This document shows, piece by piece, positions 24,404 to 54,600 of a stretch of 64,000 bases of DNA. Every line of letters starts with the position of its first letter. Position 1 is the first letter of the stretch. A program made the translations under genes and the position numbers. Source of the stretch: Ectocarpus siliculosus (lineage: Eukaryota; Sar; Phaeophyceae; Ectocarpales; Ectocarpaceae); the NCBI GenBank assembly GCA_000310025.1, contig FN648654.1:26827-90826 (forward strand), written 5' to 3'. The notes under the pieces are model-generated. The model had not been told where the DNA came from. It searched no databases and saw only the letters and a program-made list of their open reading frames with translations.

Positions 24404-24475
24404 GCCCACATGGTCTAGTGGTATGATTCGACATTCGGGTTGTCGAGGTCCGGAGTTCGAATCTCCGTGTGGGCC
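24404..24475 (+). tRNA. tRNA-Pro(CGG)
   Basis: A complete 72-base cloverleaf. The acceptor stem GCCCACA (24404-24410) pairs with TGTGGGC (24468-24474), with C at 24475 as discriminator. The D arm is GTCT-AGTGGTATG-ATTC, as in eukaryotic tRNA-Pro. The anticodon stem CGACA/TGTCG encloses the loop TTCGGGT, placing CGG at 24436-24438. The T stem CGGAG/CTCCG encloses TTCGAAT. It reads the proline codon CCG. No intron and no encoded CCA are present, as expected for a nuclear gene. The internal A box (TGGTCTAGTGG) and B box (GAGTTCGAATC) for RNA polymerase III are both present. Confidence 0.97.
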
Positions 24476-25595: not shown

Positions 25596-27715
25596 TCAAG
25601 CTTCATCCCCCGCTCCTCCGGTCCCGCCCCCGATTTGCAGCAGAGTCATCTCCTTCTCCACCGATCGCTTCCGGTCTTGGAGCGCGTAGATGCGGTTCCT
25701 GAGTGGCACAACCTTACTGTACATGAACTTGACCTTCACGTATAGCCTTGCAGGCGACGGTACCCACCGGTTGTTCGCCTGCGGAGCACCATGACAAACA
25801 ATATCACCGTGTCATACACGTATGGAGTGCGTAGATTCGTTCTATCGAATTCCCGAATGCCCGGCTAGCACGGGGCGATTATGGGACAGTTGGCAAATTA
25901 TCGAATATGAACCACAGATTGCTAGACATCTTCATGGCATATGGCCATCTTGGTCGTCGGCGGGGTTCACTCCTGTGCTATTGCACAAGAATGGCGATAG
26001 CACAAGCGCGTCTTTCCTACAGCCTAAAAAAACAATGCGCATCAACATGATAATACCGAGTAATGTCCCTACTCCTTCTGCGCCCTATGGAGGTTTGCTA
26101 GACAACTGCAACATCCACGCACTCTTCGGGCAACTCCGTGCACTATGTTGGCCCTTCCCTGTCTTCCTCACAACGTTGAGGTTTCTCCACTGGTGCACAC
26201 CAAAACGTCTGCGGTAGTGATTGCCGGCCTTCACAGCTGGCCGCAAGCAGGAGTCACCGCCGGCGAAAATCGCCCGGCATACACCAAAACCCGAAACCTC
26301 GTTGACCACAACCCCGCCTCCAACAAGCACTCGAAACCGCGCGGCTTGCCTTTTTGAGCACGGTAAGCGGCAAATCGTGCTCCCTCTGGTCCGCCAGCTC
26401 CCTCAGCGAGACCCGGCACGTCCCGGCTCTCTTCGGGGCCCCGGCACTACTGCTCCCCCCCCCCTTAGCATCTCCGCCCCCCCTGGACATAGAAGAGGAC
26501 CCCGAGTGCCTCGCCTGCGTCACGTCGAAGACAAGCTCTGCGTCCTGCGAGCGTATCGGCGCCATCACAAACACCTGGCTGAAGACCATCCCGGCAACGG
26601 TTGACGCTGCGCTGTCCCCGCCGCGGCCGGGGGGGGCGGGGGTGCGGCTCCCCCGTTCGGCGGGACGGCTGGCTTGGAGTGCGGGTCCCGGGGGCGTTTT
26701 GTCGCCCTGCCGGGAGTTGCGCAGGGAAATGACGATCGTTGTGGCCTTTCGCCCAGGAGCGTTTCGACGACACGGTGCAAGGGTCGAGAGAGGAAACGGG
26801 AGGGGTCTGGATTGAGGTGCGCTTAACGCTTTCAGACCTATTCTTCCTGGAGACAAGCTACCATCGGTGGGGTGGAACGCCTGTCTACATCTTCAAGGTA
26901 GATATGTTTCTACATCTTCGAGGTGGAGATGGGGTAGAAGTTTGTATGCTGTTGGGGCGTTTCGTGGCTACACCGTGTGTGCCGAGCTTTGCAACCAAAG
27001 CTTCGCTCGAGTGCCTCCAGAGCCGAATAGTCTAGCCTGCGACCAATCAAGGTGCCGTTCGACTCTGTTGGGACCTACATGGGGGTCCCCTTCCATGCCA
27101 TCGAGGCGAATAAGCTTGATGTTGAGGCATCCCAACGGCAGGCCGTGCTTGGTCTCGCCTATCCCCGTCTGCTCGTTGAAGGTCTCGTGCTGGTATGCTC
27201 CCTAAGTTGAGAGAAGGAAAATAACAACATTCACGGTTCGGTCGGATGCGGGGAGCGCACTAGTTTGGGCAACATTGTTTGTTGTGAAAATCCCCCTCAC
27301 AGGCAAAAAATAATACCAATGCGCCGGCCACAAACGCCACAAAGTAGTTGCGACGCAGCTGCACCCGGGGTGAATTGCGACGTGGAACATCAGACCCTGA
27401 CAAGCATGGGGTAATACATGTACTGGGACACACGTTTAGCCACACCGTCTTGGTCCACTGCTGAAGGATCAGCATGAAATCACAAAACAGTCACCTAACA
27501 GCATCGACCACTGCCGTACACAGCTACTAATAAGACACCCACCCGTTGCGTGCGTGCCGCTCGGTCTTCACGGTATGGCGTGCTGATTCTGCCTTTGAGA
27601 ACACGCCACACACATTTTCTCTGCTTATTACCCTATTCTCCTCTACCTGCAGCTGCTCCTTGACAATCTTGAGGCTCCTGGTGACGTCGCGAAGCTCTGT
27701 TCTTAGGCGTCCCAG
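25596..27715 (-). CDS. coiled-coil and C2-like domain exons, C-terminal end
   Basis: Four phase-0 exons: 27715-27647 (23 codons, ends CAG|gtagag), 27201-27079 (41 codons, ends CAT|gtaggt), 26706-26350 (119 codons) and 25733-25596 (stop TGA at 25598-25596). The first encodes a helical coiled-coil segment (LGRLRTELRDVTRSLK). The second opens a C2-like fold with CLNIKLIRLDGMEGDPH, the beta-1 strand and first loop. The third continues with VFSQVFVMAP and AELVFDVTQARH, then CRVSLRELADQ; a long Gly/Ser/Pro insert interrupts it. The fourth is a helical tail (FMYSKVVPLRNRIYALQDRK). C2 domains bind membranes, often with calcium, but only one Asp-rich loop is visible here, so calcium binding is open. 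The third exon seems to use a GC donor (AAAAAG|gcaagc). No separate 5' end was found between 27716 and the anoctamin gene, and these exons may be the 3' end of that gene. Confidence 0.6.
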
Positions 27716-28504
27716 CTGCACAGGGCAAGGTTGGAAACCAATGAGGGCCGAAGGGGCGGGGCCGGTAGAAAGAATGCAGGAGGAAACCGGTGTTGGTTAT
27801 GAGTGGAGAAGTCGCTGAGGTCGCCAGGTTGCAGCATCTTGTGCCTTCGAGGTGTTGTCAAGCATAGATGCGGATGCGGCGACAATGGTGTCAGGAGCCA
27901 TGGTCGAATGACTCTCAGCTTGGCGAACGTAGTGTACCAGTCTTCACATAGGAACGAACCCCAAGAATATGGGAAACATACCAGAAGTCGACATGCACCC
28001 AGTTCTAGGAACGTGCCATGCATTCGAAGCGTTCTAAGCGACTTTGTATCATGATTATCTGCAGAGGGATGGACTCCTGTCCAAGGAACACAGGTTGTTG
28101 CTTGGCATGCACCTAGTTCTGGGGGCGTGCCACACGATCAAAACGTTCTGCCCCCTTCGGCGGTGATACAAAAAAAAAAAAACTCTTGCCCTAGCGGTAT
28201 TGTACGTAGGCCGATACAGGTGGGTGTCTGTGTTCGGACCCTTGTGACGTCTTGACGAGCCAAAGGGAGGAGAAGAGGTGCGAAGAAACACCAGGCCTTA
28301 TCGAGATTCATGAGTTGAGGCCACCTTCCGAACAACGCCTTGAGTGGGTCACTTCTGGTCTGCTCTTCTACCAAGGGAGTTTGCACGCGGGTCGAAGTTG
28401 TCGCAGGTTTGCTCATGGCGGGGTGTGAACAACCCTCCAAGTTGAGATCCCTGTTGGGTCTCCCCGTAACAATTGACCACCCAAAGCAAGGGGACAACTA
28501 TGGC
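27716..28504. other. intron or short intergenic gap
   Basis: Contains a degenerate direct repeat: 27992-28035 and 28107-28149 share CATGCACC, AGTTCT, CGTGCCA and CGTTCT in order. No Met-initiated exon joining phase 0 into 27715 was found, which favours this stretch being an intron of one anoctamin-C2 gene. Confidence 0.45.
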
Positions 28505-31500
28505 TCAGCTCGCCTGCGCGGAAGCCCCCGGAGAGAGCTGCCTCCCGCGCTGTTTCCCGTCAAACTGAAGGCCCACGATGTCCAAGTTTCCCCTGTGCTG
28601 GGCCTCCCCCCCTGGACCCTGCGTTTCACCCCCACCGTCCTGAACAAACCCGTGAAGATGCTTCTCAACAACAAATCTAGTGGGGGCAGGGGCGGGCGAA
28701 AGCGAGGCAGGGCGCAAAATAGGTGTGCTTTTGCCGCAGCGCATGGACGTTGGAGAGAATGCAGCTATAATACTCTGTCTGCTTCAGACCGGGAAGGAGT
28801 ACGCCGGTTCCATTGTGGCCTCGGGTAGATTCGCGGGCTGGCGAAATTCACTCATGATTTCCGTCTGCGTGACACAGTTGCCGCCTGGAGCAATTGCGAG
28901 AGATACGTTTTCGACATCGTCGTCCCTGTCGCCCCTCTTCTAAAGGGGGACCTGGTAGCTTGTTCTAGAAGGAACACAGTTGTGTACGTGCACTTGTCTT
29001 CGTGAGACCCAGAGCAAATTTGTGTCGCGGAGTGATTTGTGTCGCGTGCGATGTTTCGGGGGATTATCTGACGACCACGGTCACAACGCCCACCTTTGAC
29101 GCGCTTTTATTATGGCTAAAGACGCCGGCTGGTCTGGGATGATGACGTGCACCAGCACCTTCAAGAGCAGCAAGGCATGCTCGAAGACGAGCCAAGTCAG
29201 AAACCTGTCCTCGGTTGATCTTTCCCCGATCAAGGCACACAAGGCATCGTCCACGAACGGAGCCAGCAGCAATGGGAAAAGTAAGCAAGTTGTTCACGAA
29301 CTCTGTTTCTTCTCTAAACGGTAACAGAATAAAATCCTACTTCTTTCGTAGCCAAAGCAAGTAGTCATATTGTGCGCGGTCTTCCAAAACGCCATGCTTA
29401 CTCGTCTTGTAAGGTGCCCCCCGTGAAGCAAATGATGGCTGTGTTGGTAAGCACCGCCAGGAAGCCCATGGCCTCCATCAGGGTGGACCACATCCCCACT
29501 CCCTCCGCCATTTCAGCATCCGGTCTCCTCATGAGGGACACCATCTTGTAGCTGTGCGCGCGAAGGCATCACGGCAGCGGTTGTCGAAGGGAGGGGGAAG
29601 GGCTACGCATCGGCATCGCAGCAGCCAGACACCGTCTAACAAAGAAAAAAAAGGTACGATGGTACGTAGATTGTTTCGCGACGTGTTGCCTTCGAGACCC
29701 CAAATCAACCTTGGAAAGCCCACACTCTGCGAGCTGAGCTACCAAGACCAGGAAGTAGCCGGGGGTAGACTTGACCTCAACGAAGAAACCGTTTCGATCA
29801 TATCGCTAAGCTTCAAGATAGCTAAGGACTACCATTTGCTGTGAAAATCTTTTCTTCGATTCTGCAGCGATGCCGCCACTGCGACGAACGGTCAGCAACA
29901 CTGCGAGGCAGATAGCACATCCACACGATGGCGTTGCTGCATACGCCTTTCGAAGACCTGTTTCGTTGATGAGCCTGCCCAGGTCGAACAAAAAGCTCGA
30001 GAAATCTGATTTTCGACGAGACTGTTCCAGAAACCCAATCGGCATGACCACGTACCTGTCTGTCCTTATCTGGAGCAAGACCTCCGCGATGGCGAAGAAC
30101 GTCACAATGGGCAGCGCCGACGGGAACATGGTGATGTAGCCATACTGCAGCACTATCTCCGAGTAGTCCGAGAACGGTCCGCCGTACTCAGGAAGTCGCA
30201 GTTCCGCCTCTATGGGCTCTTCCTCTCCTCCCTTCCCGCTAACATCCTCCTCTGCCCCGTCCGCCGCCCTGCCGCGTCCTCCGCGCCCTTCGCCACCGGC
30301 GACAGCGCTACTTCGGTGACGATCCTCGTCGGCCTACAAGGCAGCAACAAGCCGGAATGTGCAATGAATTCGAAGAGACCCTTGTGAGACGTAGCGATGG
30401 AGGATGGTACAGTAGTGCACCGTGGGGTTTCAGAAAATTTAGGACCATAAACTTGTTCTGGGAGTACTACATCAGGAACCCGTTTGGCGTTTGAGTCTGG
30501 AAGGATACTTCAAGGGCCCCGTGCGGCCCGATTCGGCGGTTCGTTTCGTTATTTTCCGGTTACAGCAGAAAGTCGGGTTTATGATCACCACCTCAACCTT
30601 TTCGCCTTCGTTTGCATCTGTCTGCCCGTAGCACCATTTTCTATCCACAAGCGGCTTGTTCTGGACAAAAATTCCCGGCGTGTAGCACTGCGATACTTTG
30701 GGATGCTATCGCCGGAGTTAGCTCGCGGCCGTGAGTCGATGTTGACAACGTCCCATTCCACGACTGGGCCACAAGATCGTCTTTGGCTCGGTTTTGGTAC
30801 GCCGCTCCGCCTCCATCACCTGCTCGATTCCCCTGCCCTTGCCCTTAGCGGCTGCGTCCAGCATGCGTGACGTAACGAGGGGAATGATGACCTCCATGCC
30901 AACCATGATGAAGCGGACGGCGAAGATGGCGACCAGCAGCAATCGCACCTTCCTCGTATCGATGTTTGTTTGCACGCGACGGTATCATGGCCGAAACGTT
31001 TGACGTCAACGAGCACGAGCGATACGGGAGGTCATTGCTGTGAAGAATTTTCGCTTGGTTTGGTACAGGGAAAGGCCAGAGTATCACCTATCGGAAGTGG
31101 TAATATTGCGCCACGTAAGGAGAACATGGCGGAAAGGAACGAACGTTGTCATTGTGATGCAAGTGCATCCTTCTGGTCTCTCACCTTTTCTTAGCCTACT
31201 GTTCGGGACCATTTTTTCCGCTCAAAGGTAAACATGGGAGACGGGGCTATATGTATATCTCGCATTCCCTTGGATTGCTTCTCCACGTGTGACGGACGGC
31301 CTGACGCAAGCTGGACGCAATTCTCCCGAGACACTCTCGGCTTACTGATTCTTCCTTGGAACCCGCGAGGATTGTCAATAATTTTCCCTCTACGCCGGGG
31401 TTGGATAAGGTATTTCAGCGGTGTCACGTACCGCTGTCTCAAACCAACTTGATGACAAACGCCTACCGCAAGCGTTACCGCACCTCATATATGCATGAGT

Positions 31501-34500
31501 CGGTACATCCGTAGATTTGCTCCTCAATAAAGGCCGTGTAGCACAGGGCGGAGTAGTTGTTGAACATCTGCATGGCAGGAAACGAACGAAGCCGGGAGTC
31601 AATGCATTTCATGCGGCCGTAGCATGACCCCGGGAAACACTTGATTCTTGCGTGCAATACCACCCGAAGTGCTGAACATCCAGACAAGCCAGAAATTGGA
31701 CGGAACCAACAAAACCAACTCATGCACTGAGGAAGAAAGCACGGCACGCAAGGATAGGAACACCCACGCCTAGTGACGCGAGGAAAAGAGAAAGGAAAAC
31801 TGTAGCTGCGGCTATTCGAAGCCTCGAGAAGGGACTGACGGCCACACAGAGGCTCGGAGATGGAAAGCTGTTCAGCTACTGGGACGATCGCTGTGCATGG
31901 TAGCATGGATGAGCGGGCGGGAACGGAAATCCCTAATAATCTCTGCCAAAGTCGAATACTGCAAGGGCTTACTGGAGCGGACAGGGTCTTAGTCTTGAAT
32001 CGCGCGGATACATGCACTAGAAAAGATGAATGAGTGAAGCTACAACACGGAGAATTTCCGTACAGAATGACGAACAGAGATATGTGCGCAGTTCGGCCGG
32101 CGGGTGGTGGTCTCTGTTTCTCTGTGTGTCTTCTTTTCCCATGTCATTGGCCGATACGAAGGGAGTCACAGAGGATACTTATGTCCGGTTTTATGAACCA
32201 TTTCCTCGCCGGGGCCGGTCTAGTCAGCCTGAGCCCAAAATTCAAGCCACCGACAAAAGACAACTGACAACATCGTTCATCAGCGCACTACACCAAGTGA
32301 GCGAATGAAGAACTCGCATCGCCAACAGCTCGGCACAAAAAAAGGAGAGCCTTGCGAGGCATCAATGATTGACTCGACCGTACAACAATCGGCAGCATCT
32401 CCGTCTGGAGTTTAGACATCTGCGGTGGATGGTCAACAGCACAGCAGTTGTGTAGCCCGGACACGGAGAGACGTAATGATCTCGGCCATAGAAAGTGGTA
32501 ATTCACCCAAAACATTGGCCGTGTTGACAACCCAGACGCCGACAATACCGGGTCTAGACGGCGTCATGGGGAAAAGGAAAAAGTGGGAAAATTAGAGCAT
32601 TCCCAGAGTGCAACTTTGATTCCTTCAGTACCGACCATTCTAAAAAGCATCGTTGTCCCAAAACCCATGCTCCTGGAAAGGGCAAAAAACAAGCCTTGAC
32701 GAGGAGAGCATTATTTCTAAGGCGCCACAACTGGAAAAGGAATGAGTTGGCAAGTGAGGGTAGCTCTGCGCAATAGCACACCTGAAAGAGGAATGTCTTG
32801 AAGATGAGGTTATTCTCGTAGTCTGTCTCCGTGCGGTAGTTCTCGAAGTCGTTCAGCCTCTTCACCACGCGGGAGTAGACAAAAGAGAGGAACTGGATTT
32901 GAAGGGACGCCAGGAAACTCGTTGCGTAGCCTGCCCACCTGAAGGTTCGAAAGACGCTCATCCAATGAGAACGATGTTCTTGCTCCGAACGAAGATACAA
33001 TGCAATCATTGGAAAACTTATTCGTTAAGTGCTTGTTCACAAAGCACGGTGTCCTCCATTGAACGACATTCTATCGGCGACACAAGCAGTGCAACACTGG
33101 AAAAACAAACCGTCTTGTGACCAGACATCCGAAACGACCTCTCCTACATTGCTGAGAATAAACTCCCTGCGTTTCCCACAGATTCGTAAGTAACAATCCT
33201 CCCAAGCGGATTTGCAGACAGCATCAAGTAGCGCTCTCTTCAGCCGAAAACACGAACGAACTCCGTAGAAATACCGCCGCTAGTAGTTAAGAACGGTAGG
33301 ACCCGTTATCTCTCGGTCCCGCAACCAAATGGAGAAACTACAAGATTATAAGAATTTCGTTTCAATACGCCGCATAATAAGGCTAACGCCCTAAACACAG
33401 AAGCGAGAATGTAGTTGTCTTCAAAGGCGAACACTATTGCGAGGCGCCTGGCCATTTTCTGTGTGGCAAAAGGGAGGCCACAAGGGAAGGTCATTCCCAC
33501 CCCAACTTTTCCGCGATAGGAGTCAGAAGGAAGGGTTCATCTGCTGGATGGTTCCACTGGATCTAATACTTGTGTGTTCGATGTACATACCCATTTTCCT
33601 CACGGCGAAAAATAGACCTCAGGGCCTACGCAATCCCATTCAGGTCGGCTATGGGTTGTCGTGGTGACCTTCACCCCGGGTGCAAAAAGATGAACCAAGT
33701 TCCGAGGTTTACACCGTTGGGATACCATCGATAAATACGACCGAGGCAAACCTGACCACGACTAGGTGGTGTGTTCTTCCTTCACGAAACGGTACGGCAA
33801 TACTTACGTGTAGCCGAGGTCGGTTTCGAGGTAGTGCTCCAGCCATTCCACTAGGCCGACGAGCAAGAGCAAGCCCGCGACGAACAGGAGGACTACCACC
33901 AGCCCTAGCACTTGGCGAATCTGCGCCAAGAGCAAACAGCCGATGCTTGTGATGCCAGCGAGCATTTCAGGTTTGCAACGGCATGCAGGATAGTTCTGAC
34001 GCACGCTTCTCTGTCGCGCGGGTAGACTACGAATCCTACTGCAATTGACGTGTGGGAAAGTTCCGAAGCGACGGAGAGATGGACACTCTCATCGCACGGC
34101 GTTCTTTCTACTCATACTTCCAGACGAGGGATTCGGTCTCTCGCCGAGAGAGAGGGCCTCACTATCCACTCGAAAAAGCGCCCCCCACGCTCCACCGTAC
34201 AGATGTACGCAAGAACCCGAACGTACGCACACCCACTGGTGCTCTGGCAACCTCGTCTTCTACCACTCTAGAGAATCTTCCGCGCACTGCTGAACTCCGG
34301 GTGGGGGTAGCGCGGGACCGGTAACGCCAGGCAAAAATTGCTCGGATACCAATAGAAACACAGTTTGTAGGGTCACTTAACGCTGTGCATATATTGTTTT
34401 TGTATATCCTGGGACTCTACTTGTTCAATCATTTCTCCCCAGATTTTTTTTTGTTTTCGCGAAGAATGACATAAAAAGTGCTTCTGGCATCGATTACTCC

Positions 34501-37500
34501 CGGTTCGACATATTCACACCTTTCGCTTGTGCTCCGGATAGTAGGTCTGGAAAGTGTTCGTTACCGGGGAGCGACGTCGACCACCCCCAGGGCTGTCTTT
34601 GTCGCCCTCGAAGTTCGGTCTGGTGTGGAGTCATAACACACGGTAAGGAAAGGAAACAAAACAAAGTAGAGTCCGCTCATCTTGCTGTAGATGGCTTTCG
34701 AAAGAAGCGGAGGGGGAAATGGGGGGGCGCCTGGCGATTCGACAACAACAACAAGCTCGCACAGTTTGTGAGGCATCGTTTATACGCAACTTTGCAAGGA
34801 CCCGCCTCCCAAGCATGCCGACAAACACGATCGATAGCCCAGCCGAGTACGTGTACCTGTCCTTTTCGATCTCCTCGAAGCCAGAGGTGCCCCACTTGAC
34901 CGCGATCACTTTTTCTTCACGATCCCACAGCTCTTGGTAGATGACGCTCCACAACACGATCCCCACCGCCATGGACACCTGTTTCGAAATGTTCATTGTT
35001 TCTGCACTTCGGCCCGGGGGGTTCTTCGCGTGGTACCTCACACTCTGCTGTCTCGACATCGCACGAGTCTGCCCGTTGCCACCTTTCCTACTTCGCTGTT
35101 GGTTATGCGTATGGCGTCTTGGCGACATGCTACAGCAGTTCCTAGCTGAACGGTAGAGGCGCACACACACGCGAGCCTGGGAACACAACCATGGTTATTC
35201 CATAGCCAAACACAACCATGGTTATTCCATGCCCACGTCTGTCGGAATACTCGAGAAGGGCCGGCGCGGCGCATCCGAAAGTTGCAACACATCCAATGTT
35301 GGACGCGTTTCTGCTGCATGCCTGGCATGTGGCGTAGGTTGACGCCGCAACCGACCGGGCGACGGCACAGCCGTTCACTGTTGTATATACCGCTGCTGCG
35401 ATCAACCTGAGGCTCCCACTAAAGAGGGGAGAGCACTTCATCGGTTTGGTTACCCTGACCATTAGGCAAAAATCAGTCACAGAACCGGGTTTCTGTAAGC
35501 CTTTTCTGAACTACAGTACCTGGCGAAAAATATCCAGTCATCACCTGGGAGAACGTCCACCCTGACTCTTCGAACGTGATCCCCTTCACGAGGATGTAGA
35601 TCTCTATCCCGACCCCGTACAAGGCCGGCACGATCAGTGCCCACCTTCGGTAGTTGTGGGGTTGGGAACGTCGTGGGACCATTCGTGCGGTAGGTGAATC
35701 GGGTCATTCACAGCAAGGCCTGAATTGTCCCCAAATCACATTCGTTCCTAAAATCTTCCGGGGAACTTTTCAAAGTGCACCCCCCCTCCTGACACCATTC
35801 TCAAGCCACGTTGTTGTTGATCTGCTTCATGCGTCTTGTAGAAATCCACGCCTACGTTTTTTTCTCCAATCGGCTTGATGCGCAAACCCGAATGCTATTT
35901 AAAGCGCCTGGTTAAAGATGTCATGCGGGAAGTGATGTATGTGCGTACGTGCCGTTTTGTTCATCATTTGAAAACCAGACAACTCTCAGCAGTCTTGAAC
36001 ATTGTTCTAGGTGAGAGAAACATCTCGCTCCTCCTATTAGGTTCCGCCATGAACTCTACACCTAACTTCCATTTCTATATTTCTATACGCTTCGACGAGA
36101 TGCTGTAGTACCTGGGGTGAACTCGTGTGGCACCGCGGGGAAAACAGGGGCTAACTGGGAGGTTTGTCCACGCAGCGTGTATGTACTCTATTTTCGATGG
36201 TGAGATCGAGCGTTGCTTCCTCCCCAAACTGACGTGCAATGGATCTGCACATGCTCTGCACCATGTATTGATTGTGTTATGAGAGCTTGTTTGCTTTGTT
36301 ACGTGTCTTCCATCTTCTGCAATGGCTATCGTATGATGTATGATGAAACATTCGAAAGGGAAAGACGGAGGGGGGGGGGGGGTCTTACGCGTAAAAACCT
36401 AGCCAGGCGAAGTAGAAGGCCATTTTTTCCCCGAAGTAGCCACGGATATCGTCGAGCGGCTGACAGAATAGCTGGAGGAACCACGGCGCGGAATTGCCGT
36501 GGTCCATCATCTGCACAATCGTTACAGAGCGGTCGATTGGAGTAGCAGGCTGGATCAGGTTGCCGCGTAACTATGTTGGCCTCAACAGTCTTACAGTCTA
36601 ATCCCCAGAATATCACAAAAAATATGCACTCTTGTTGTACGAGTGCGAATTTCTCGTTCATCGGGCATACTCCCGAATTCCCGCGTGGCTCAATAAACAC
36701 TGTGGTCCTTACACTTCTCTGGACCGCTGCATGCTCCACAACAACCATGTTAAGGTGGTGCTTCCTTCATCGACCGTCTAAGGGATTCCCACGTAGAGGC
36801 GAACAAGGCATTTTTCGTTGAAGGCGCATCTAAATGCGACCAACGATGGGTGGAGTTTTTTTTCATCTCAAGCTGGAGAAATGGATGATACCTACGGTAG
36901 ATTTCAAGGATGAGCGAAATTTGGATGTACGTCAGTTAGCACTTGGCTGGGCGAGCGTTTCCGTTCAGGCTGCTCCCATAAACTAGACTACGACCTCATA
37001 CGAAGACAACACCCTTCGCTCTATCTAGCACGTCATTTTACATCCCATCGTTGTGTCGTGGCTGTGCCCTACCTACACGACGCGTAACATTTAATGCATG
37101 CGTCAAACCATCAAGGAGCAATACATCAACGTGCCCTAGTTAACTTGCACAGCAAGACAAACACAGCAATTATATCAGGGAAGTATTGCGAACTTGCCCG
37201 CTCATTTTTGCACCCCAACAACATTGAACTGTTCTCATGTTCCCACCTGCATGCTGAGCATGGGGGCGCCGATTCGATCGCTTCTCTCCCGCCAGAACCC
37301 CAAAGTCCACCTTTTCTGCAAAACCTGAGGGTGTGGCGGTCGAACTTCTGCTTTGATCACTGAACGCCATCTACCTATTTTGATGCTTCGCACTAGTGAT
37401 TTGCCTGGGTCGGGTACTATCTCGCTTTTCGTCCGCGTGCCAAAACATGGTGTCGTACGTTGAGACAGTTTTGCTATCCTTCGGGAATGTTTTGTGTGGC

Positions 37501-37910
37501 TTTACAGGCATGCGTGTTCCGTAGCAAACCAACCCTTAAAGAAGATTTTACGCTATTTTAGCGCATTTCAACGATTTGGTATCGGACAACTACGCATGTG
37601 TGCACAAGGGATATCCCAGTAGCATGGCTCTGTGGCGATGACCTTTCCCGCTAGGGTCGGCATACAATAGTACCACAGTACGCCATACCGCAAGGTCTAC
37701 GTGTGAGAATGCAAGTTGTCATTGTTTACTGGTGGGCGTGCCACAACGCAAAGCGCAATGCATTGTGGAGAAAGTCATCTTGACCGAGACTAAGGAGGAA
37801 GCACGGTGTAGCAGGTCTCGCAACTCCCAGTGTGACTTACCTCTTTAGTGATGACCTCTCCCCGGTTTGCATCGTGCAGGGCGCACACTGCATCGACAAT
37901 TCCCCTCGCC

Positions 37911-37986
<76 letters not shown>

Positions 37987-40900
37987 AGCGATAGTAGCGT
38001 CGAGAGGTGCTCGGGGAGCTCAGCGGCTCAGCATGTATATGGGAAGCGTGACCACGGGATTTGTACCATACTCCGAGGAAGACTCTGTTGTTAGGAGAGA
38101 CTGTTCTAATCGTACAACAAGTGGGTGTTCAATGGTCAAATGGCCGAATGCGGACAAAGACGTAAGTAGAACAGCCGTTGCTAGCTGCAATTTTGATTCT
38201 AGACAAAATTCTTTTTGTTCCGGCTCGTGCCTTCATTCAAGCCCTATCGGTCAAGACTTTGATCTAGGAAGCATACACCATATGCCCCGCAGTCTTGCCT
38301 CTTGGGTAGGCGGCCCTTCGTGCATCTTATGACTATTGTATCTCCGACGATCGGTTCTCGCCTGCAACACTCCCATGTCGAAAAAGCTGTCGATGATGCC
38401 CTTCGTCAGCGCTAGCCGGTCCTTGGCCCGAAAAATCGTGCGCCCGCGGATACTCGGGTACGTCTTCGTTTTGCGTTCGATGAGATCGGTTGCAGAGATA
38501 TACCAAAGGAAGCCTAACGTCAACACTGTTTGAAATAGGAGGCGGCGGTTTAGTACGGTAGGGATAAGGTACGCTTTCGTTCGTGCCCTACCGATACTCC
38601 CGCGTGCCACCACAAAGGCAGACGGGCATGGTGTCACCCTTAGTCTCGGCGGACAACCAATCTCCCGAAACGCGAAGGGACGATCATCACGATAGCCTTC
38701 GCCGCACGGTGGGAATAAATCAACACAAACACAAAAGATCGATGCAGATTGAGAAAAAGTGTTATAAGCATATGATTACGTGGCTCTCAGGAAGAATGCC
38801 AAGCAATCAAACCTGAAAGAGGTGGCGATGCTTGTCGTCGTTGGTGTACTCAGCGTAAGCAGGAAAGCGATTCACAACCGGCACCCTATCAGCGATGCGC
38901 TCCAAGGCGTGCGTTCGTCGGCTCCACTGGTTCGGCGCGACCTCCTCATCGAAGACTGCCAGATCGTTCGGGCTAATTTTTTCCGCCTTTATTGGAGGGA
39001 AGTAGTTGTCGCCAGAGAGATGCATACACGTACGGAACAACGCCAACGTCAACTACTGTTCGTGCTATTTCCTTTCAAACAAAGGTTTGCCACCAGAAAA
39101 AGCACGTCACCACTCCGAGGTTTAGTGTTTGCTACGATGAGCGCAGAATGTAATGCATCGTTCGAAGTCAGTGTATGTATGTTTTTTCCCGTTTAGATCT
39201 ACTTGCGTCAGCAGCAACAGCAAGATTGAGACAAGCGTGCCCTCTCCCAGGTTGGCAATTCCCAAGTACCAGCAGATTCCTCGAAATCTATAGAAAAACG
39301 GTTGGAAACCGGGTTCAACTCGAACGAAGGAGGAGGAACGCCGAAGAACTACACTAGAAAACATTACGGGCGAAACGGGAGCCGTATCATTGAAAAATCT
39401 TAAAGCTCTGTTGGCGTTATGTTTGTTTTGCTGATATGAACTTCGCGCATAGACGTTCTCCAACGCAATTCAATTGTGACGAGTCAAGTCCTGGCCGGGC
39501 CCCGTCGGCTGCACGAAAATTGAGCCGAGAAATCCCAAACGATTCTTGGGCTGAAAATTCCCAATGTACCTACCTCCTTTCAGCAAGTACAAGACAGCAA
39601 CAAGTGCCGGCCGGCGGGCGGGCCCACATTGCGGACTGTACTGACCCGGAGCTCGTGTTTTGAAGGGAAATCGCCTATGCTGCACCTGAAAGAGCTTCTC
39701 CAGGGTCTCGTTGGCCTCGTCCTTCCCGTAAAGCCTCAGCTCCTCCGCGATCTCGTCCTCCGTCCAGAAAGTCTCGCCAGGGTCCACCTGTTGAGGGTTT
39801 CCAAGAGCGGATGGGGCCGACAGAAACACGGCAGGCCGGGAAGGAGACGTTGGGTCTGAGTCAACTCAGCAGCCGTAGGGACGTCAATATCTGCGAGCGG
39901 CACTGGACACCATCTTGAACAAAGAATTGAGGCAATGGAGGAAAGCATCCGTTTGCCCGTGCAGGCTTCAGCAGCAATATAGTTTTGGTTCACTGACGCA
40001 CAGAAAAACCTTCGCGAGATGCGCTCAGCTAACCATCGCGAAGCGACAGGGGCACCGAACCGAGTCGTTCCGCGCAAACCATCCAAAGGCCCGCTCCGCC
40101 AACCTTCCCGCAAGGGACGTGTAAGTGCCTCCAGACTCACCTCCCCCCTGAATTGTAGTCGGTAGCTCTCCCTCGCTGCTTGTCTCTCTAAGAGAACGAT
40201 CGGAGCGCGTATCCGGCAGAGAACCTGTGCACGGAAACACACAATGGAGGCTTGGTGGGTGTCGACTGAGGCCTGTTTTTCCTTTCAACCTCAATTTGAT
40301 CACGGCCTTGCGGACTTCCACTTGAACGCCAGCCCCGACGTCAAAGGTCAACCCGTGAAGCTTTCTGAATGCCTCGATGCACAGCACTTTTATAGACCAC
40401 GAAGAGGGCGGGCGAATAATCCGGGCTTGTGAGACCAAAACGCGCTACCCGAGATTGTGGGTGTGGTGGCGTGACAGCGAGGCGTTCGGACGGTGCCGCG
40501 GCCAGAAATAGTCGTGGCAACTGCGACTGGGTAGAGGACCACACTATGTACTCCTGCGGAGAGTGGAATTGTTGACTGACCTTATCTCCATGCCTCGAAA
40601 GGGTGAGCTTCAGCTGCAGTCCAGATTTCTCAAAGAGCGTGTTGACGATGACTTCCCGTGCCAGTCTGACCCACTCCGACTGAGATATGGACACCTAAGA
40701 GTAACAAGTGGAGGGGGGAAAAGTCGTTCAGTTCTCTGGTTGGCTCTTTACTCTTTGCCGTACGTTGTTGGCTGCGCACCTTCTCTACGTAGAGTTGCCT
40801 CGATTTGCTGACGAGAGCGCCTCAACGTCAAGAAATTTCCAGAACAAAGTTCATTCCTGAGGTCTCTTGTCTTCCTAGTGGCGTACTTAGCATAGGTGCC

Positions 40901-42025
40901 AAAAAACGTAGAAGGCGAGACGATCCCCCCCTCAAACGTTAGTACAGACGACAATAATTCCAACACCTGTAGGAACCACACACTGACCATTTATGTGCGC
41001 TCAGTTCACTGGTGTACCACGGGAACGATCGTCTAAAGCCGAACCAAGCATGGATAAAATGACTTATCAGACCCGAAGACCTAACTGACACGATCTCCCA
41101 CCTCCTCGGAGTCGGCGCTTGGCGTCCGGAACCTTGCCTCCCACTCCCTGGCGAGGCTTTCCTTCGCCGCGGTCTTGGTCACCTCGTCCCCGGGCACGGC
41201 GGAGTACCAGATGTCGTTTACCTACTTGTCGGTGTCGGCCGCGTTTAGTTCGTTTCCATCTCATTGTCCCATGGGTTGGTCAATGTATTTTTTTGCGTTC
41301 GGCAGCTGCCGCGTGTTTCTGCTAGTCACATCGCTCTCCCTTGTATGCCGTACAATCATGCCCTAGAGGTAAAAACGGCGTCTAGTAGGGATTTAAGTTG
41401 TTTGTACTTCCGAAGTGGTTTTGGTTGCTGTTTCGCTTGTAGAATAGTTGTTGCTGTTGAAGCACACTACGCCCAGGACGGTGTAGAGCAAGGTGCTAAA
41501 CGACGTATCATCGCCTCAAGGGGATCGGCCTCTATCTGTGTTCATCCTTTGGAACGACTTCAGCAAGATCTATTGCCCCGCACCCCGGAATGGATTTTGA
41601 AACGAACTTCTTCCCAACGTTGGAAGCTTCAGAAGGAAACTATTGGGAAGTGCAATATTGCATGTGTTGGTGCTCATATGCCGGATTTCCATCGCCAAGG
41701 TCGGCACCGAGGAAGACTTGTCGTGCGAAATAGGATATGACAAGCCGTCACGCCCCCGCAATGTGGTACAAGCGGAGCTTTTGCAGCCTTTCCATTTGGT
41801 AACGTTGTCTGCACGCACCTCCGTCAAGGTGATGCGTTGGGCGGCTTCGAACCCGCCGGTGTCGCTATCGGAGTCGTCGCTCCCTTCTCCGTCGCCGACC
41901 GCCGACAACTTTCCGTATCCGGCCCCGGTTGATGCATCGTACGACCATTTGTCATCAAGAAGTGCAGAATAGACGTCATCGGTCACATGACAGTATTCGT
42001 GATGGAGCAGAATGGATGCAGCTAG
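28505..42025 (-). CDS. ano/TMEM16-family membrane protein (anoctamin)
   Basis: Anoctamins are dimeric ten-helix proteins acting as calcium-gated chloride channels or lipid scramblases. Twenty-one exons chain in phase on the minus strand: ~42025-41819, 41221-41102, 40694-40581, 40372-40304, 40224-40141, 39787-39686, 38986-38813, 38463-38362, 37909-37841, 36510-36389, 35644-35545, 34978-34857, 34619-34565, 33920-33808, 32938-32782, 31567-31484, 30948-~30790, 30333-30056, 29551-29402, 29219-29094 and 28676-28505 (stop TGA). Family landmarks in order: CRIRAPIVLLERQA, IRGYFGEKMAFYFAWLGFYA, LWSVIYQELWDREE with KWGT, RPNFEGD, the TM5 end RLNDFENYRTETDYENN, FQMFNNYSALCYTAF, FIMVGMEVIIP, YSEIVLQYGYITMF to LQIRTD, RRPDAEMAEGVGMW, and LVFEHALLLLK with IIPDQP. 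An acidic insert (EEDVSGKGGEEEEPIEAEL) precedes the YSE helix. One border (38362) seems to be a GC donor. The start codon was not found. The donor near 30790 is not resolved. Confidence 0.92.
35187..35232 (+). repeat. tandem repeat of about 24 bases
   Basis: ACACAACCATGGTTATTCCA occurs twice in tandem, separated by a few bases, in the anoctamin intron between 35545 and 34978. Confidence 0.85.
37914..37983 (+). repeat. (AG)35 microsatellite at a 3' splice site
   Basis: Seventy bases of uninterrupted AG. On the transcribed strand it is (CT)n ending four bases before the acceptor of the anoctamin exon 37909-37841 (ctgcag|GCG), so it forms the polypyrimidine tract of that intron. Such repeats change length easily, and splicing of this exon could vary with it. 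Confidence 0.95.
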
Positions 42026-51691: not shown

Positions 51692-54600
51692 TTAATCGTC
51701 CTCCATCTTCATCGCGACCAATGCAGGGCGGGGTTCGGCGGGGTAAACCAGAGCAGGGTGGTGCATCAACGTAGAGCCGGAAGGAATGTTCGAAATGATA
51801 ACAGGTATCTCGGGGGCTGCCGCCCAGGGATGGTCGATAGACCTTGAAAGGCCACCATCAACATGTTCAGGTTCCACGCCACTTGGCCGCGCATCATTTC
51901 ATCGGCCTAGGAACCTACAGTTCCGTGCTTCTGCTCTCCGCCGGACCGAGGACTCTCTTGCCGTGTTAGCGACTATGCTTCCACCTGTCATTTTGAACTC
52001 TAGTCAAACCTCCATACTGCAACTACCCAGTGAGTTATCGTTTCCAGTAACAAGGGCGAACACCCGTACCGTCATGGGGTAAACATGAAATACGACCCAA
52101 GAAACTATTCGTCGAGAAAATCACGAAAAGAAAAGAAACGTGTGCTACAGTGTACGCCTTGCAAAGTTTCGGTCTACCAAACGGAATGCGCTATAGTGTC
52201 AAAACAGTGGTTATCGAAATCTATCTGCAGCGTGCTGCCTCGTTCACGAGAAGGTGAGCCTCACCCCGTCCATGAAGTCCGCGAACGGGTTATAGCCGTC
52301 GTCGTCCCCTGCATCGTCCCCGTCTGCCCCTCCGTTTCCGGCGTCATCGAATGGATTGAATGCGGCCTTTTTCTTGCTGCTGGCCTTCTTTGAACTTGTC
52401 AACGCCGCTGTCTGCTCCTCGTCGTCATCCTATATTTTGTCGAGCGAGCATCAATAGATCAGCCGACCGGATACTGCATCCTACAGGTGGCTGCTGGTAC
52501 ACCGAACCAGCCCATCGTAGACAAAATTCGGTGAGGTCGTGATGAGTAGTCATTGATACGGGAGAAACAGGCAACCAACCGTCAGGGACTGTACAACGCA
52601 CCTGTATCGAAACAGCTTAGACTGCAGTATTTCGAACGGCCGTCGTACCGAACCCTCTTCTTCTGTTCGTTTACGCCCTATGCCCTCAGACGCTGCTGGC
52701 TGAGGAATGTTTGCGTCGTACGATGTAGGTTGTCGCCGGCACTGTCCACAAAAATAAACCATTCAAACACGCGAATACCCCAAATCATGCAAAGCCAATC
52801 TTCACAGCGAACATACGTTCATTACGTAAACGTGTCACCAAACAGATACTTCATCATACCGAGTCCTCGTCTTCTTCCTCCTCGTCGCTGTCATCGTTGT
52901 CTCCGGACGCATCGCTGTCGTCGCTCTCGGCCTCTAAATCCTCCTTGTACAAGCGTTCTTCCTCCTGCAGGGCACGATTGTGTACGTTAGATCAAGAGAT
53001 GACCACAACCACAACAACGACAGCAACAAGAGCAAAAAAGACGAGGACAAAATCGACCACAACGACGATGATAACAGCGATATCGACAACGGCAACGACA
53101 ACGACCGCGACGACGACGGCAACAACAACGACAGCAGCAACAACGACAGCAACAACTTCAGCAACAACAACGGCAAGGTGTTAGCGCTGCATATTTGTAC
53201 CTTCCCAGATTCTCTTCAAGACAAGAACGTGCACAAGCTAAGTACGCACATTGCTCCCAAGCAAGCACCGTTCCCGCCACGACTCCCGGTTCAGTTCCCC
53301 GTATATTTTATCTCCCTCTTACGAATAGCGCTATTATTCGCCCAATTCGAAAAATTGGATTCACTGAACCAGCTTGCTGCATTTTGTCGTAGTGCTGGCT
53401 CGCCTGTAATGCCGCCATGACCTCCGCGTAGGCCGGGACGAGATCGATGCGGTATGTAAAGATGGAGTTGTCGCGGATGACCTCCCACGAAAATTTGGCG
53501 TCTCCCCTCCCCGGAGGAGCTTCCTCCTCGTCCATGTCCCACCCCTGGTGTAGGTTCGTGAAGTTTGCACACGACGAACAATGAATGAACTTGGAACATG
53601 TCATGCGCGGAGGTTGAAAGCGTGTTGGTGCAGCTACTGGAGGTTGTACATGAAAAAATGCAGAAGTTGCCGGTGCAGCTGTCGATGAGTCTTCTTCCTT
53701 GTCCATTTCCCATCAATTAACTGCCAGCAGCGGATACAAACTTCCGGACTGGTGCGTGTTCAAGTGGAAACTAAAGCATCTAGACGACTGAAATATTATC
53801 GGCACGATGCTGCTTTTGGTGCTGTCGACATGTTTGTATCCAAAGACCTGGCGTTCTATCTCAGCCTGAGCTGAAGCTGTCCCGCCATCCTTTCAGAAAA
53901 CAATGTTTTCCGGCACGTCGGTAAGAACAGCCCGAGAACGCGGGCGATCGCCACAACTCTGGAACATTCTACCGCATGGGGCAGGCAATAGCATCGATTG
54001 TGCTTTGAGGGGGGTGGATATTACTCATTATGTTGCAACCATTGGTCTCGTGTATTTCGAAGTAGTCGGAAAAGCGTGGCAGTTCCACGGCAGTTTCATG
54101 ATATACCGTGTACCCGACGTAGTATCACACAGAGGCATCGACCTCCGTGTGGTCTACTACAGCCAGCCATGATACACTTCCGGGATTTCCGTGGCTCTGC
54201 GATAGTGTGTGCTATCGCAAGCCATGACAGTCACCACATTACGGAAGTGATGCACATCACCAGTAAACACGAAAAATCAGCTAGCAGTAGATGGTGGTGA
54301 AACAGGCATTCGATATCACAATAGAGTAGGCACGCGAGAAGTTGTACACCCAAGTCCTAGGTGTGATATCGTTGGTTAACTTGCCTTCTTTTTGACGACA
54401 GACTTATCCGCGAGGTGACTGACCATCCAGCCCTCCAGCTTCTCTGCCGTCGTGAGGTCCCCGTTCTTGGGGATGTACTGGTAGTAGACGTCCGTGTATG
54501 CAGCGACCTCCGATGTCCACCTGATAGGCAACAAGGCGTTCAGTTAGGGCGATCGGTCATCAATCGGCACCACCTAGACGTACACTGAGACAAACGACGC

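What the first reader, a model, noticed from the sequence alone, without database searches (positions are those of the whole stretch)
25596..42025. Candidate anoctamin-coiled coil-C2 fusion encoded by one gene
The last anoctamin exon reads to a TGA at 28507-28505, but nine bases before it is CAG|GCGAGC, a GC-type donor identical to the one inferred at 53404. Using it keeps phase 0 and joins directly to the exon 27715-27647, whose phase is 0, and then to the C2 exons. Only 789 bases separate the two parts, with no visible start exon for a separate C2 gene. A calcium- or lipid-binding C2 domain on the tail of a scramblase or channel would give it its own membrane or calcium sensor.
Basis: partly seen in the sequence, partly recalled or inferred. 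Interest (0 to 1): 0.8.

Follow-up and report, generated by a model that had tools for sequence, protein, structure and literature searches.

The report
Anoctamin gene with possible extra tail
A real but divergent membrane-lipid/ion-channel gene (an anoctamin) is followed on the same strand by a short run of protein-coding-like exons that may be spliced onto its tail, but the tail is not recognisably a C2 domain and the join is only plausible, not shown.

Summary
The anoctamin is real: joined exon cores match PF04547 over 1-460 of 460 (359.7 bits). Its last exon (28676-28505) is supported by paralogs and solved TMEM16s. The donor CAG|GCGAGC nine bases before the TGA, phase 0 and the 789-base gap are as described. 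The join is credible: of 28 chaperonin introns modelled in this genome, one secure case uses CAG|GCGAGA, and lengths run 237-1295, so 798 fits. Start exons for a separate gene exist in the gap but do not stand out as coding. Against it: 214 of 1099 open-frame tails carry an equally good in-phase donor, and two of the four paralogs read end at their own stop without this extension (the other two unresolved). The C2 label fails every sequence test. The tail is a heptad-like stretch plus a coding-like, possibly beta-rich segment without relatives in the collections searched. I lean slightly to one gene, perhaps with a short isoform (stop kept) and a long one (GC intron removed). Only cDNA can decide. 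Calcium or lipid sensing by the tail is unsupported.

The parts
29094..36453 (-). Anoctamin membrane region, 11 exon cores before the last exon: 36453-36400, 35646-35545, 34981-34868, 34621-34520, 33920-33808, 32967-32782, 31570-31484, 30948-30820, 30333-30056, 29551-29402, 29219-29094. Several outer boundaries are approximate.
   Evidence: PF04547 hits exon by exon; joined cores cover PF04547 1-460/460, 359.7 bits; ANO10, ANO1 and nhTMEM16 in PDB; junction options (3 of 11 junctions gave no option there). The boundary 29402/29219 was read by eye.
28505..28676 (-). Last anoctamin exon: (R)FVVEKHLHGFVQDGGGETQGPGGEAQHRGNLDIVGLQFDGKQRGRQLSPGASAQAS and stop TGA 28507-28505
   Evidence: Join 29094->28676 scores 33.3 bits against a profile of 3 paralogs plus nhTMEM16 and ANO10; five alternatives 24.0-27.5, stem alone 25.6; best splice score of the options. 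Its codon score is weak, 0.014 per codon, and one antisense frame scores higher.
28512..28513 (-). Candidate GC donor dinucleotide, CAG|GCGAGC, phase 0, nine bases before the end of the stop codon's frame
   Evidence: a near-identical donor CAG|GCGAGA ends a chaperonin exon in the same genome, L021
27716..28504 (-). 789-base gap between the anoctamin stop and the tail exons: intron (fusion model; 798 bases with the last 9) or intergenic (two-gene model). Candidate ATGs at 28416, 28052, 28023, 27901
   Evidence: Candidates and donors; codon scores of the candidates -0.48 to -0.14 per codon; best 30-codon stretch in the gap 0.057 against 0.34 and 0.47 in the two nearest tail exons
27632..27715 (-). 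Tail exon 1, heptad-like LGRLRTE LRDVTRS LKIVKEQ LQVEENR (ends 27632 or 27647)
   Evidence: codon score 0.27 per codon, above the 95th percentile of stop-free stretches
27079..27201 (-). Tail exon 2, GAYQHETFNEQTGIGETKHGLPLGCLNIKLIRLDGMEGDPH
   Evidence: codon score 0.25 per codon, above the 95th percentile
26350..26745 (-). Tail exon 3 (start 26745 or 26706), strand-like stretches separated by G/S/P-rich inserts, ends in GC donor AAG|GCAAGC
   Evidence: codon score 0.076 per codon for 26745-26350, above the 99th percentile for its length; AlphaFold2 on this exon alone: four strands and a helix, mean pLDDT 52.5; no Foldseek match at E <= 10
25596..25778 (-). Tail exon 4, ANNRWVPSPARLYVKVKFMYSKVVPLRNRIYALQDRKRSVEKEMTLLQIGGGTGGAGDEA and stop
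   Evidence: codon score about 0.19 per codon, above the 95th percentile

Best explanation
A complete-looking, divergent anoctamin (TMEM16 superfamily scramblase or channel) gene whose last exon carries a usable but weak GC donor just before its stop codon. When the 798-base GC-AG intron is removed, the protein gains about 240-260 residues: a short coiled-coil-like stretch and a possibly beta-rich segment without known relatives. When it is kept, the protein ends with a short tail (51 residues after the conserved K) like two of its paralogs. Shown here: the anoctamin, the last exon by homology, coding-like codon use in the tail exons, and one secure use of this donor type elsewhere in the genome. 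Inferred: that the join happens, that it is alternative, and that the cytosolic tail acts as an oligomerisation or docking module.
For: PF04547 over its full length. Last exon supported by homology. Fusion junction total 5.6, inside the range -1.9 to 8.0 of the eight junctions scored for the anoctamin and far above its next alternative at -7.2. One secure GC donor (CAG|GCGAGA) among 28 chaperonin introns modelled; intron lengths 237-1295, median about 517. A second GC donor lies inside the tail itself. All four tail exons score above the 95th percentile of stop-free stretches, while candidate start exons in the gap score -0.48 to -0.14 per codon (for 57-base stretches the median is -0.37 and the 90th percentile 0.04). 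A separate gene would need to fit 3' UTR, promoter, first exon and an intron into 789 bases (inference). GC donors are reported enriched in alternatively spliced genes (PMC2490688, start of abstract seen in the listing).
Against: 214 of 1099 open-frame tails have an equally good in-phase donor. Paralogs on C11 and C2:6.2M end in tails of 31 and 47 residues after the conserved K with their own stop, C11's last exon also holds a better in-phase donor, 4.0, and a tail search finds nothing at any other anoctamin locus. The best start exon in the gap has a better donor (4.05) than the fusion donor (1.57), equalled by 18% of 1000 random stretches. A possible next start lies only about 265 bases after the tail's stop, so close spacing of genes may occur here. 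The last exon itself has weak codon scores. No transcript data. The splice weights are generic consensus values recalled, not trained on this genome.
Confidence: 0.5

Rival explanations
1. Two tandem genes: the anoctamin ends at 28505 as two paralogs do, and a small separate gene encodes the coil and beta-rich protein from a start exon inside the 789-base gap.
For: Two of four paralogs end in short tails. ATG exons with in-phase donors are present: 28023 with CTG|GTATGT (4.05), 28416 in context CCCGCC|ATGA with TTG|GTAGAA (-2.3), 27901 in context TCGACC|ATGG. If 27901 were joined, its MLDNTSK would continue the heptads in register (read by eye).
Against: These candidates score -0.48 to -0.14 per codon. 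27901 needs a weak GC donor AAG|GCACAA (-4.2) and an intron of 129 bases, shorter than all 28 modelled chaperonin introns. Little room for 3' UTR and promoter (inference).
Confidence: 0.35
2. The tail really is a strongly diverged C2 domain, so the product is an anoctamin-coil-C2 protein with its own membrane-binding module.
For: Strand-like stretches in a plausible order (LGCLNIKLIRL, TTIVISL, SQVFVMA, AELVFDVT, GTCRVSLREL, ARLYVKVKF; by eye), a GDPH that could sit where C2 domains have DPY, and strands in the exon 3 model.
Against: No Pfam or PDB match, and PF00168 finds nothing in the window. Under a 14-sequence C2 profile the tail and its trimmed copy score 0.8 and 1.1 bits; 6 of 100 shuffles score higher than the trimmed copy (best 5.8), and six held-out real C2s score 29.5-72.6. 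No Foldseek hit for the exon 3 model, which is low confidence.
Confidence: 0.2
3. The tail block is part of neither gene as modelled: for example exons of a gene whose other parts are missing or broken, or an annotation chimera.
For: No convincing paralog of the tail in the genome and no relative in viral or prokaryote contigs; the tail's first exon lacks a start.
Against: Four phase-compatible exons ending in a stop, all with coding-like codon use.
Confidence: 0.1

Closest known systems
Anoctamin/TMEM16 family (PF04547); nearest solved structures ANO10/TMEM16K, then ANO1, nhTMEM16, ANO6, afTMEM16
   Same: Full-length family match; PDB best E 2.3e-41 to ANO10; R-x-F region after the last membrane segment
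   Different: In TM7-TM8 aligned to ANO1, the acidic positions read D, E, Q, D instead of E, E, E, D (that these are calcium ligands is recalled). Possible extra C-terminal tail absent from the two paralogs resolved.
C2 domain (PF00168), synaptotagmin and ferlin C2s
   Same: Only a loose strand pattern and a GDPH motif, by eye
   Different: No statistical similarity in any test made
Paralogous anoctamins of the same genome (C11:5.15 Mb, C2:6.20 Mb)
   Same: Ungapped alignment over the 17 residues P...K after the last membrane segment; short polar tail
   Different: They end at their own stop; the tail search finds nothing at these loci at E <= 10

Membership tests
Anoctamin/TMEM16 | Match to PF04547 over the curated cut-off and along its length | tested here: met
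   359.7 bits (cut-off 28), positions 1-460/460, E 3.1e-107; the only other match, RSN1_7TM, is below its cut-off at 18.7 bits
Anoctamin/TMEM16 | Acidic calcium-site residues in TM6-TM8 | tested here: inconclusive
   Against ANO1, three of four TM7-TM8 positions stay acidic and one is Q; TM6 was compared by eye only; ligand identity recalled
Anoctamin/TMEM16 | Scramblase or channel activity | not testable with these tools
   none
C2 domain (PF00168) | Profile match over the curated cut-off | tested here: not met
   0 families for the whole tail and three trimmed copies at E <= 10; none of 17 own-genome PF00168 matches lies in the window; 0.8 and 1.1 bits under a home-made C2 profile, within shuffles
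C2 domain (PF00168) | Eight-stranded beta-sandwich fold | tested here: inconclusive
   Only exon 3 was folded (contiguous-DNA rule): four strands, mean pLDDT 52.5, no Foldseek hit
C2 domain (PF00168) | Acidic calcium-binding loops (not required of all C2s) | tested here: inconclusive
   One GDPH; no second D-x-D loop visible by eye; no alignment good enough to place loops
Coiled coil | Heptad repeat with hydrophobic a/d positions | tested here: inconclusive
   Four heptads with L at a, and L, V, V, E at d, read by eye in 27715-27632; no coil predictor was run
GC-AG intron | Strong donor context and spliced product in cDNA | tested here: inconclusive
   Context CAG|GCGAGC; CAG|GCGAGA is used elsewhere in the genome; no cDNA

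The most novel reading that the evidence does not exclude
A lineage-specific anoctamin in which a GC donor nine bases before the stop works as a switch: keeping the intron gives the short tail seen in two paralogs, removing it adds a coil plus a new beta-rich module of no known family, giving the scramblase or channel an extra cytosolic docking domain.
Probability: 0.25. Interest if true: 0.6.

Novelty: new variant of a known kind. Interest (0 to 1): 0.35.

Why it matters
Anoctamins outside animals and fungi are little studied, and known ones carry their regulation in the membrane domain and N terminus (recalled). A C-terminal module added through a weak splice site would show a way to tune scrambling or channel function, and one RT-PCR would test it. 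If the join is not used, the case is an ordinary divergent anoctamin beside a small gene of unknown family.

Tried and rejected
C2 by Pfam, PDB, the own-genome PF00168 search, and a C2 profile built from this genome's C2s and PDB C2s: unsupported. NCBIfam on the tail: nothing at E <= 1. Relatives of the tail in viral and prokaryote contigs: none. The best non-self match of the tail in the own genome (C12, 23.1 bits, two in-frame stops) was read as plain sequence and judged chance; the eight weaker ones (E 0.3 to 5.3) were not inspected. Alternative ends of the anoctamin (unspliced RWAL, 28964 RTSYQVPL, 28934 and 28925 acidic tails, 28781) score lower than 28676. AlphaFold2 and Foldseek on exon 3 alone: uninformative. 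A repeat seen by eye near 28.0-28.1 kb was not found by the repeat tool at 18 bases or more. Literature: six searches for anoctamin or TMEM16 with C2 domain and stramenopile, oomycete, protist or fusion terms, or with brown alga or Ectocarpus, showed no report of such a fusion (judged from titles and starts of abstracts, plus passages of PMC6742357 and PMC5812556). Two searches for GC-AG introns in Ectocarpus and for brown-algal intron and UTR lengths gave nothing usable. Of the four paralogs read, two (C26, C2:2.49 Mb) have C termini that I did not resolve and did not count as ending short. In the chaperonin control, 7 of about 10 loci and 29 of 40 neighbouring exon pairs were used; the other 11 pairs were skipped because the profile showed a missing exon between them.
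Full report
What was checked. The window lies at G000:C157:26827-90826 of an unnamed 189 Mb assembly. The - strand text at 30500-25000 shows the TGA at 28507-28505, the site CAG|GCGAGC and the downstream exons as described; the same CAG|GCGAGC string stands near 53404.

The anoctamin. The own-genome search with PF04547 gives 22 matches, five of them in the window at about 36.4-29.4 kb on the - strand. Exon cores joined with phase-consistent junctions (3 of 11 junctions gave no option there, and the 29402/29219 boundary was set by eye) match PF04547 from 1 to 460 of 460 with 359.7 bits and ANO10 in the PDB with E 2.3e-41. The N-terminal exons I joined gave no Pfam match at E <= 1, and the start codon was not found.

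The last exon. Five alternative continuations after ...IIKARQ were compared with the chosen one under a profile of three paralogs plus nhTMEM16 and ANO10. The join to 28676 scores 33.3 bits, the stem alone 25.6, and the alternatives 24.0-27.5. After the aligned K, the paralogs C11 and C2:6.2M run 31 and 47 residues to their own stop; ours runs 51 residues to the TGA at 28505. The best donor in their last exons scores 4.0, in phase 0 (C11), and -0.9 (C2:6.2M), so a good donor in a genuine last exon is not rare. The codon score of our last exon is weak (0.014 per codon, between the 90th and 95th percentile), and one antisense frame scores higher.

The candidate join. Scored with generic consensus weights (recalled), the fusion donor gets 1.57 and the junction 5.6; the next option gets -7.2. 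The eight anoctamin junctions with options score from -1.9 to 8.0. Control 1: among 1099 tails of stop-terminated open frames of 56 codons or more, all six frames, from the window and four loci, 214 have a phase-0 donor as good, 12 a GC one, and 11 one within the last nine bases. Control 2: in seven chaperonin loci of this genome I tried 29 of 40 neighbouring exon pairs. 28 gave a junction, 26 GT and 2 GC. One GC (L020) has a poor score and a length mismatch, so 27 remain with one secure GC, CAG|GCGAGA in L021; one further GT junction (L024) is nearly tied with a GC option. Intron lengths of the 28 ran from 237 to 1295. So a donor of this kind is used, and 798 bases is an ordinary length.

Is there a start exon for a separate gene? 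Yes on paper. ATG exons with in-phase donors exist; the best donor is 4.05 (ATG 28023), and 18% of 1000 random 790-base stretches do as well. Their codon scores are -0.48 (28023), -0.42 (28416 short form; -0.23 long form), -0.30 (28052) and -0.14 (27901) per codon, against a median of -0.37 and a 90th percentile of 0.04 for stop-free 57-base stretches. The best 30-codon stretch in the gap scores 0.057, while the two nearest tail exons score 0.34 and 0.47. The codon model rests on only 943 codons, mostly membrane exons with some likely intron read-through plus two C2 exons, so this is modest evidence. A possible next start about 265 bases after the tail's stop would mean that close gene spacing occurs here.

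The tail. Its four exons score 0.27, 0.25, 0.076 and about 0.19 per codon, each above the 95th percentile for its length. Its internal GC donor AAG|GCAAGC beats the next option by 8 units. The whole tail and three trimmed copies have no Pfam family at E <= 10; of two single exons also tried, one gave nothing and the last gave only a sub-threshold methyltransferase match at E 0.16. There is no PDB match at E <= 10, no NCBIfam match at E <= 1 and no relative in viral or prokaryote contigs. In its own genome, 4 of 13 matches at E <= 10 are itself and none lies at another anoctamin. PF00168 has 17 matches in the genome, none in the window. Under a C2 profile of 14 sequences the tail gets 0.8 bits and the trimmed copy 1.1 bits; 6 of 100 shuffles score higher than the latter (best 5.8); six held-out C2s get 29.5-72.6. 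AlphaFold2 on exon 3 alone gives four strands and a short helix at mean pLDDT 52.5, with no Foldseek match. A beta-rich fold is possible; C2 is not shown.

Mechanism and weight. The C terminus of TMEM16 proteins is cytosolic (recalled), so a tail would be an extra cytosolic module. The donor evidence favours the join by a factor of perhaps three to five (my estimate: 1 against 0.19 for any donor, or 1 in 27 against 12 in 1099 for a GC one). The crowded gap favours it further, and the short-tailed paralogs count against it. I put one gene at about one half and two genes at about one third. A weak GC donor just before a stop would suit regulated splicing; GC donors are reported as enriched in alternatively spliced genes (PMC2490688, start of the abstract in the listing). 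The two-isoform reading is inference.

Calcium. Aligned to ANO1, the TM7-TM8 acidic positions read D, E, Q, D. If these are the calcium ligands (recalled), one is lost, which does not strengthen the idea of a calcium-tuned protein. Nothing found here shows calcium or lipid binding by the tail.

On rereading the calls I corrected the last-exon tail (51 residues), the number of exon cores (11 plus the last), the number of trimmed tail copies (three), the estimate of the donor evidence (three to five), and the wording on candidate start exons, and added results against the join.

Noticed in passing
G000 C2:6.20 Mb (L007), C2:2.49 Mb (L008), C11:5.15 Mb (L005), C26:5.13 Mb (L006), C157 (window), possibly C20:1.39 Mb: At least five anoctamin loci in this genome. 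[quoted passage not shown] if this is a brown alga, that statement is too low.
   Followed up: partly
30192-30064: TM7-TM8 of this anoctamin reads LLQIRTD where ANO1 has IIEIRLDA, so one acidic position is Q; paralogs C11, C2:6.2M and C26 keep E there.
   Followed up: partly
28939-28787: Inside the intron before the last exon an open frame reads KRGDRDDDVENVSLAIAPGG..., resembling by eye the acidic tails of the paralogs and in frame with the last exon but cut by stops; it may be an alternative or relic exon. Its direct use as a tail scored low.
   Followed up: partly
L021 4951-4959: A chaperonin gene (PF00118) on C11 uses the GC donor CAG|GCGAGA; the scan found no GT alternative.
   Followed up: yes
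24404-24475: tRNA-Pro (anticodon cgg) on the + strand downstream of the tail block.
   Followed up: no
25330-25290: A possible next start on the - strand, GCCATGGCGATCAGC... (MAISSSGNSPDDKR), about 265 bases after the tail's stop.
   Followed up: no
about 38020-37850: Long CT-type simple repeat (reads SLSLSL... in all three - strand frames) between anoctamin exons or just upstream of the membrane region.
   Followed up: no
literature: ANO7 (anoctamin-7) is listed among male WL-responsive genes of the kelp Saccharina latissima in a list that also holds centrin-3 and BBS9 (PMC6742357, one passage); a link to flagellate gametes is only a thought.
   Followed up: no
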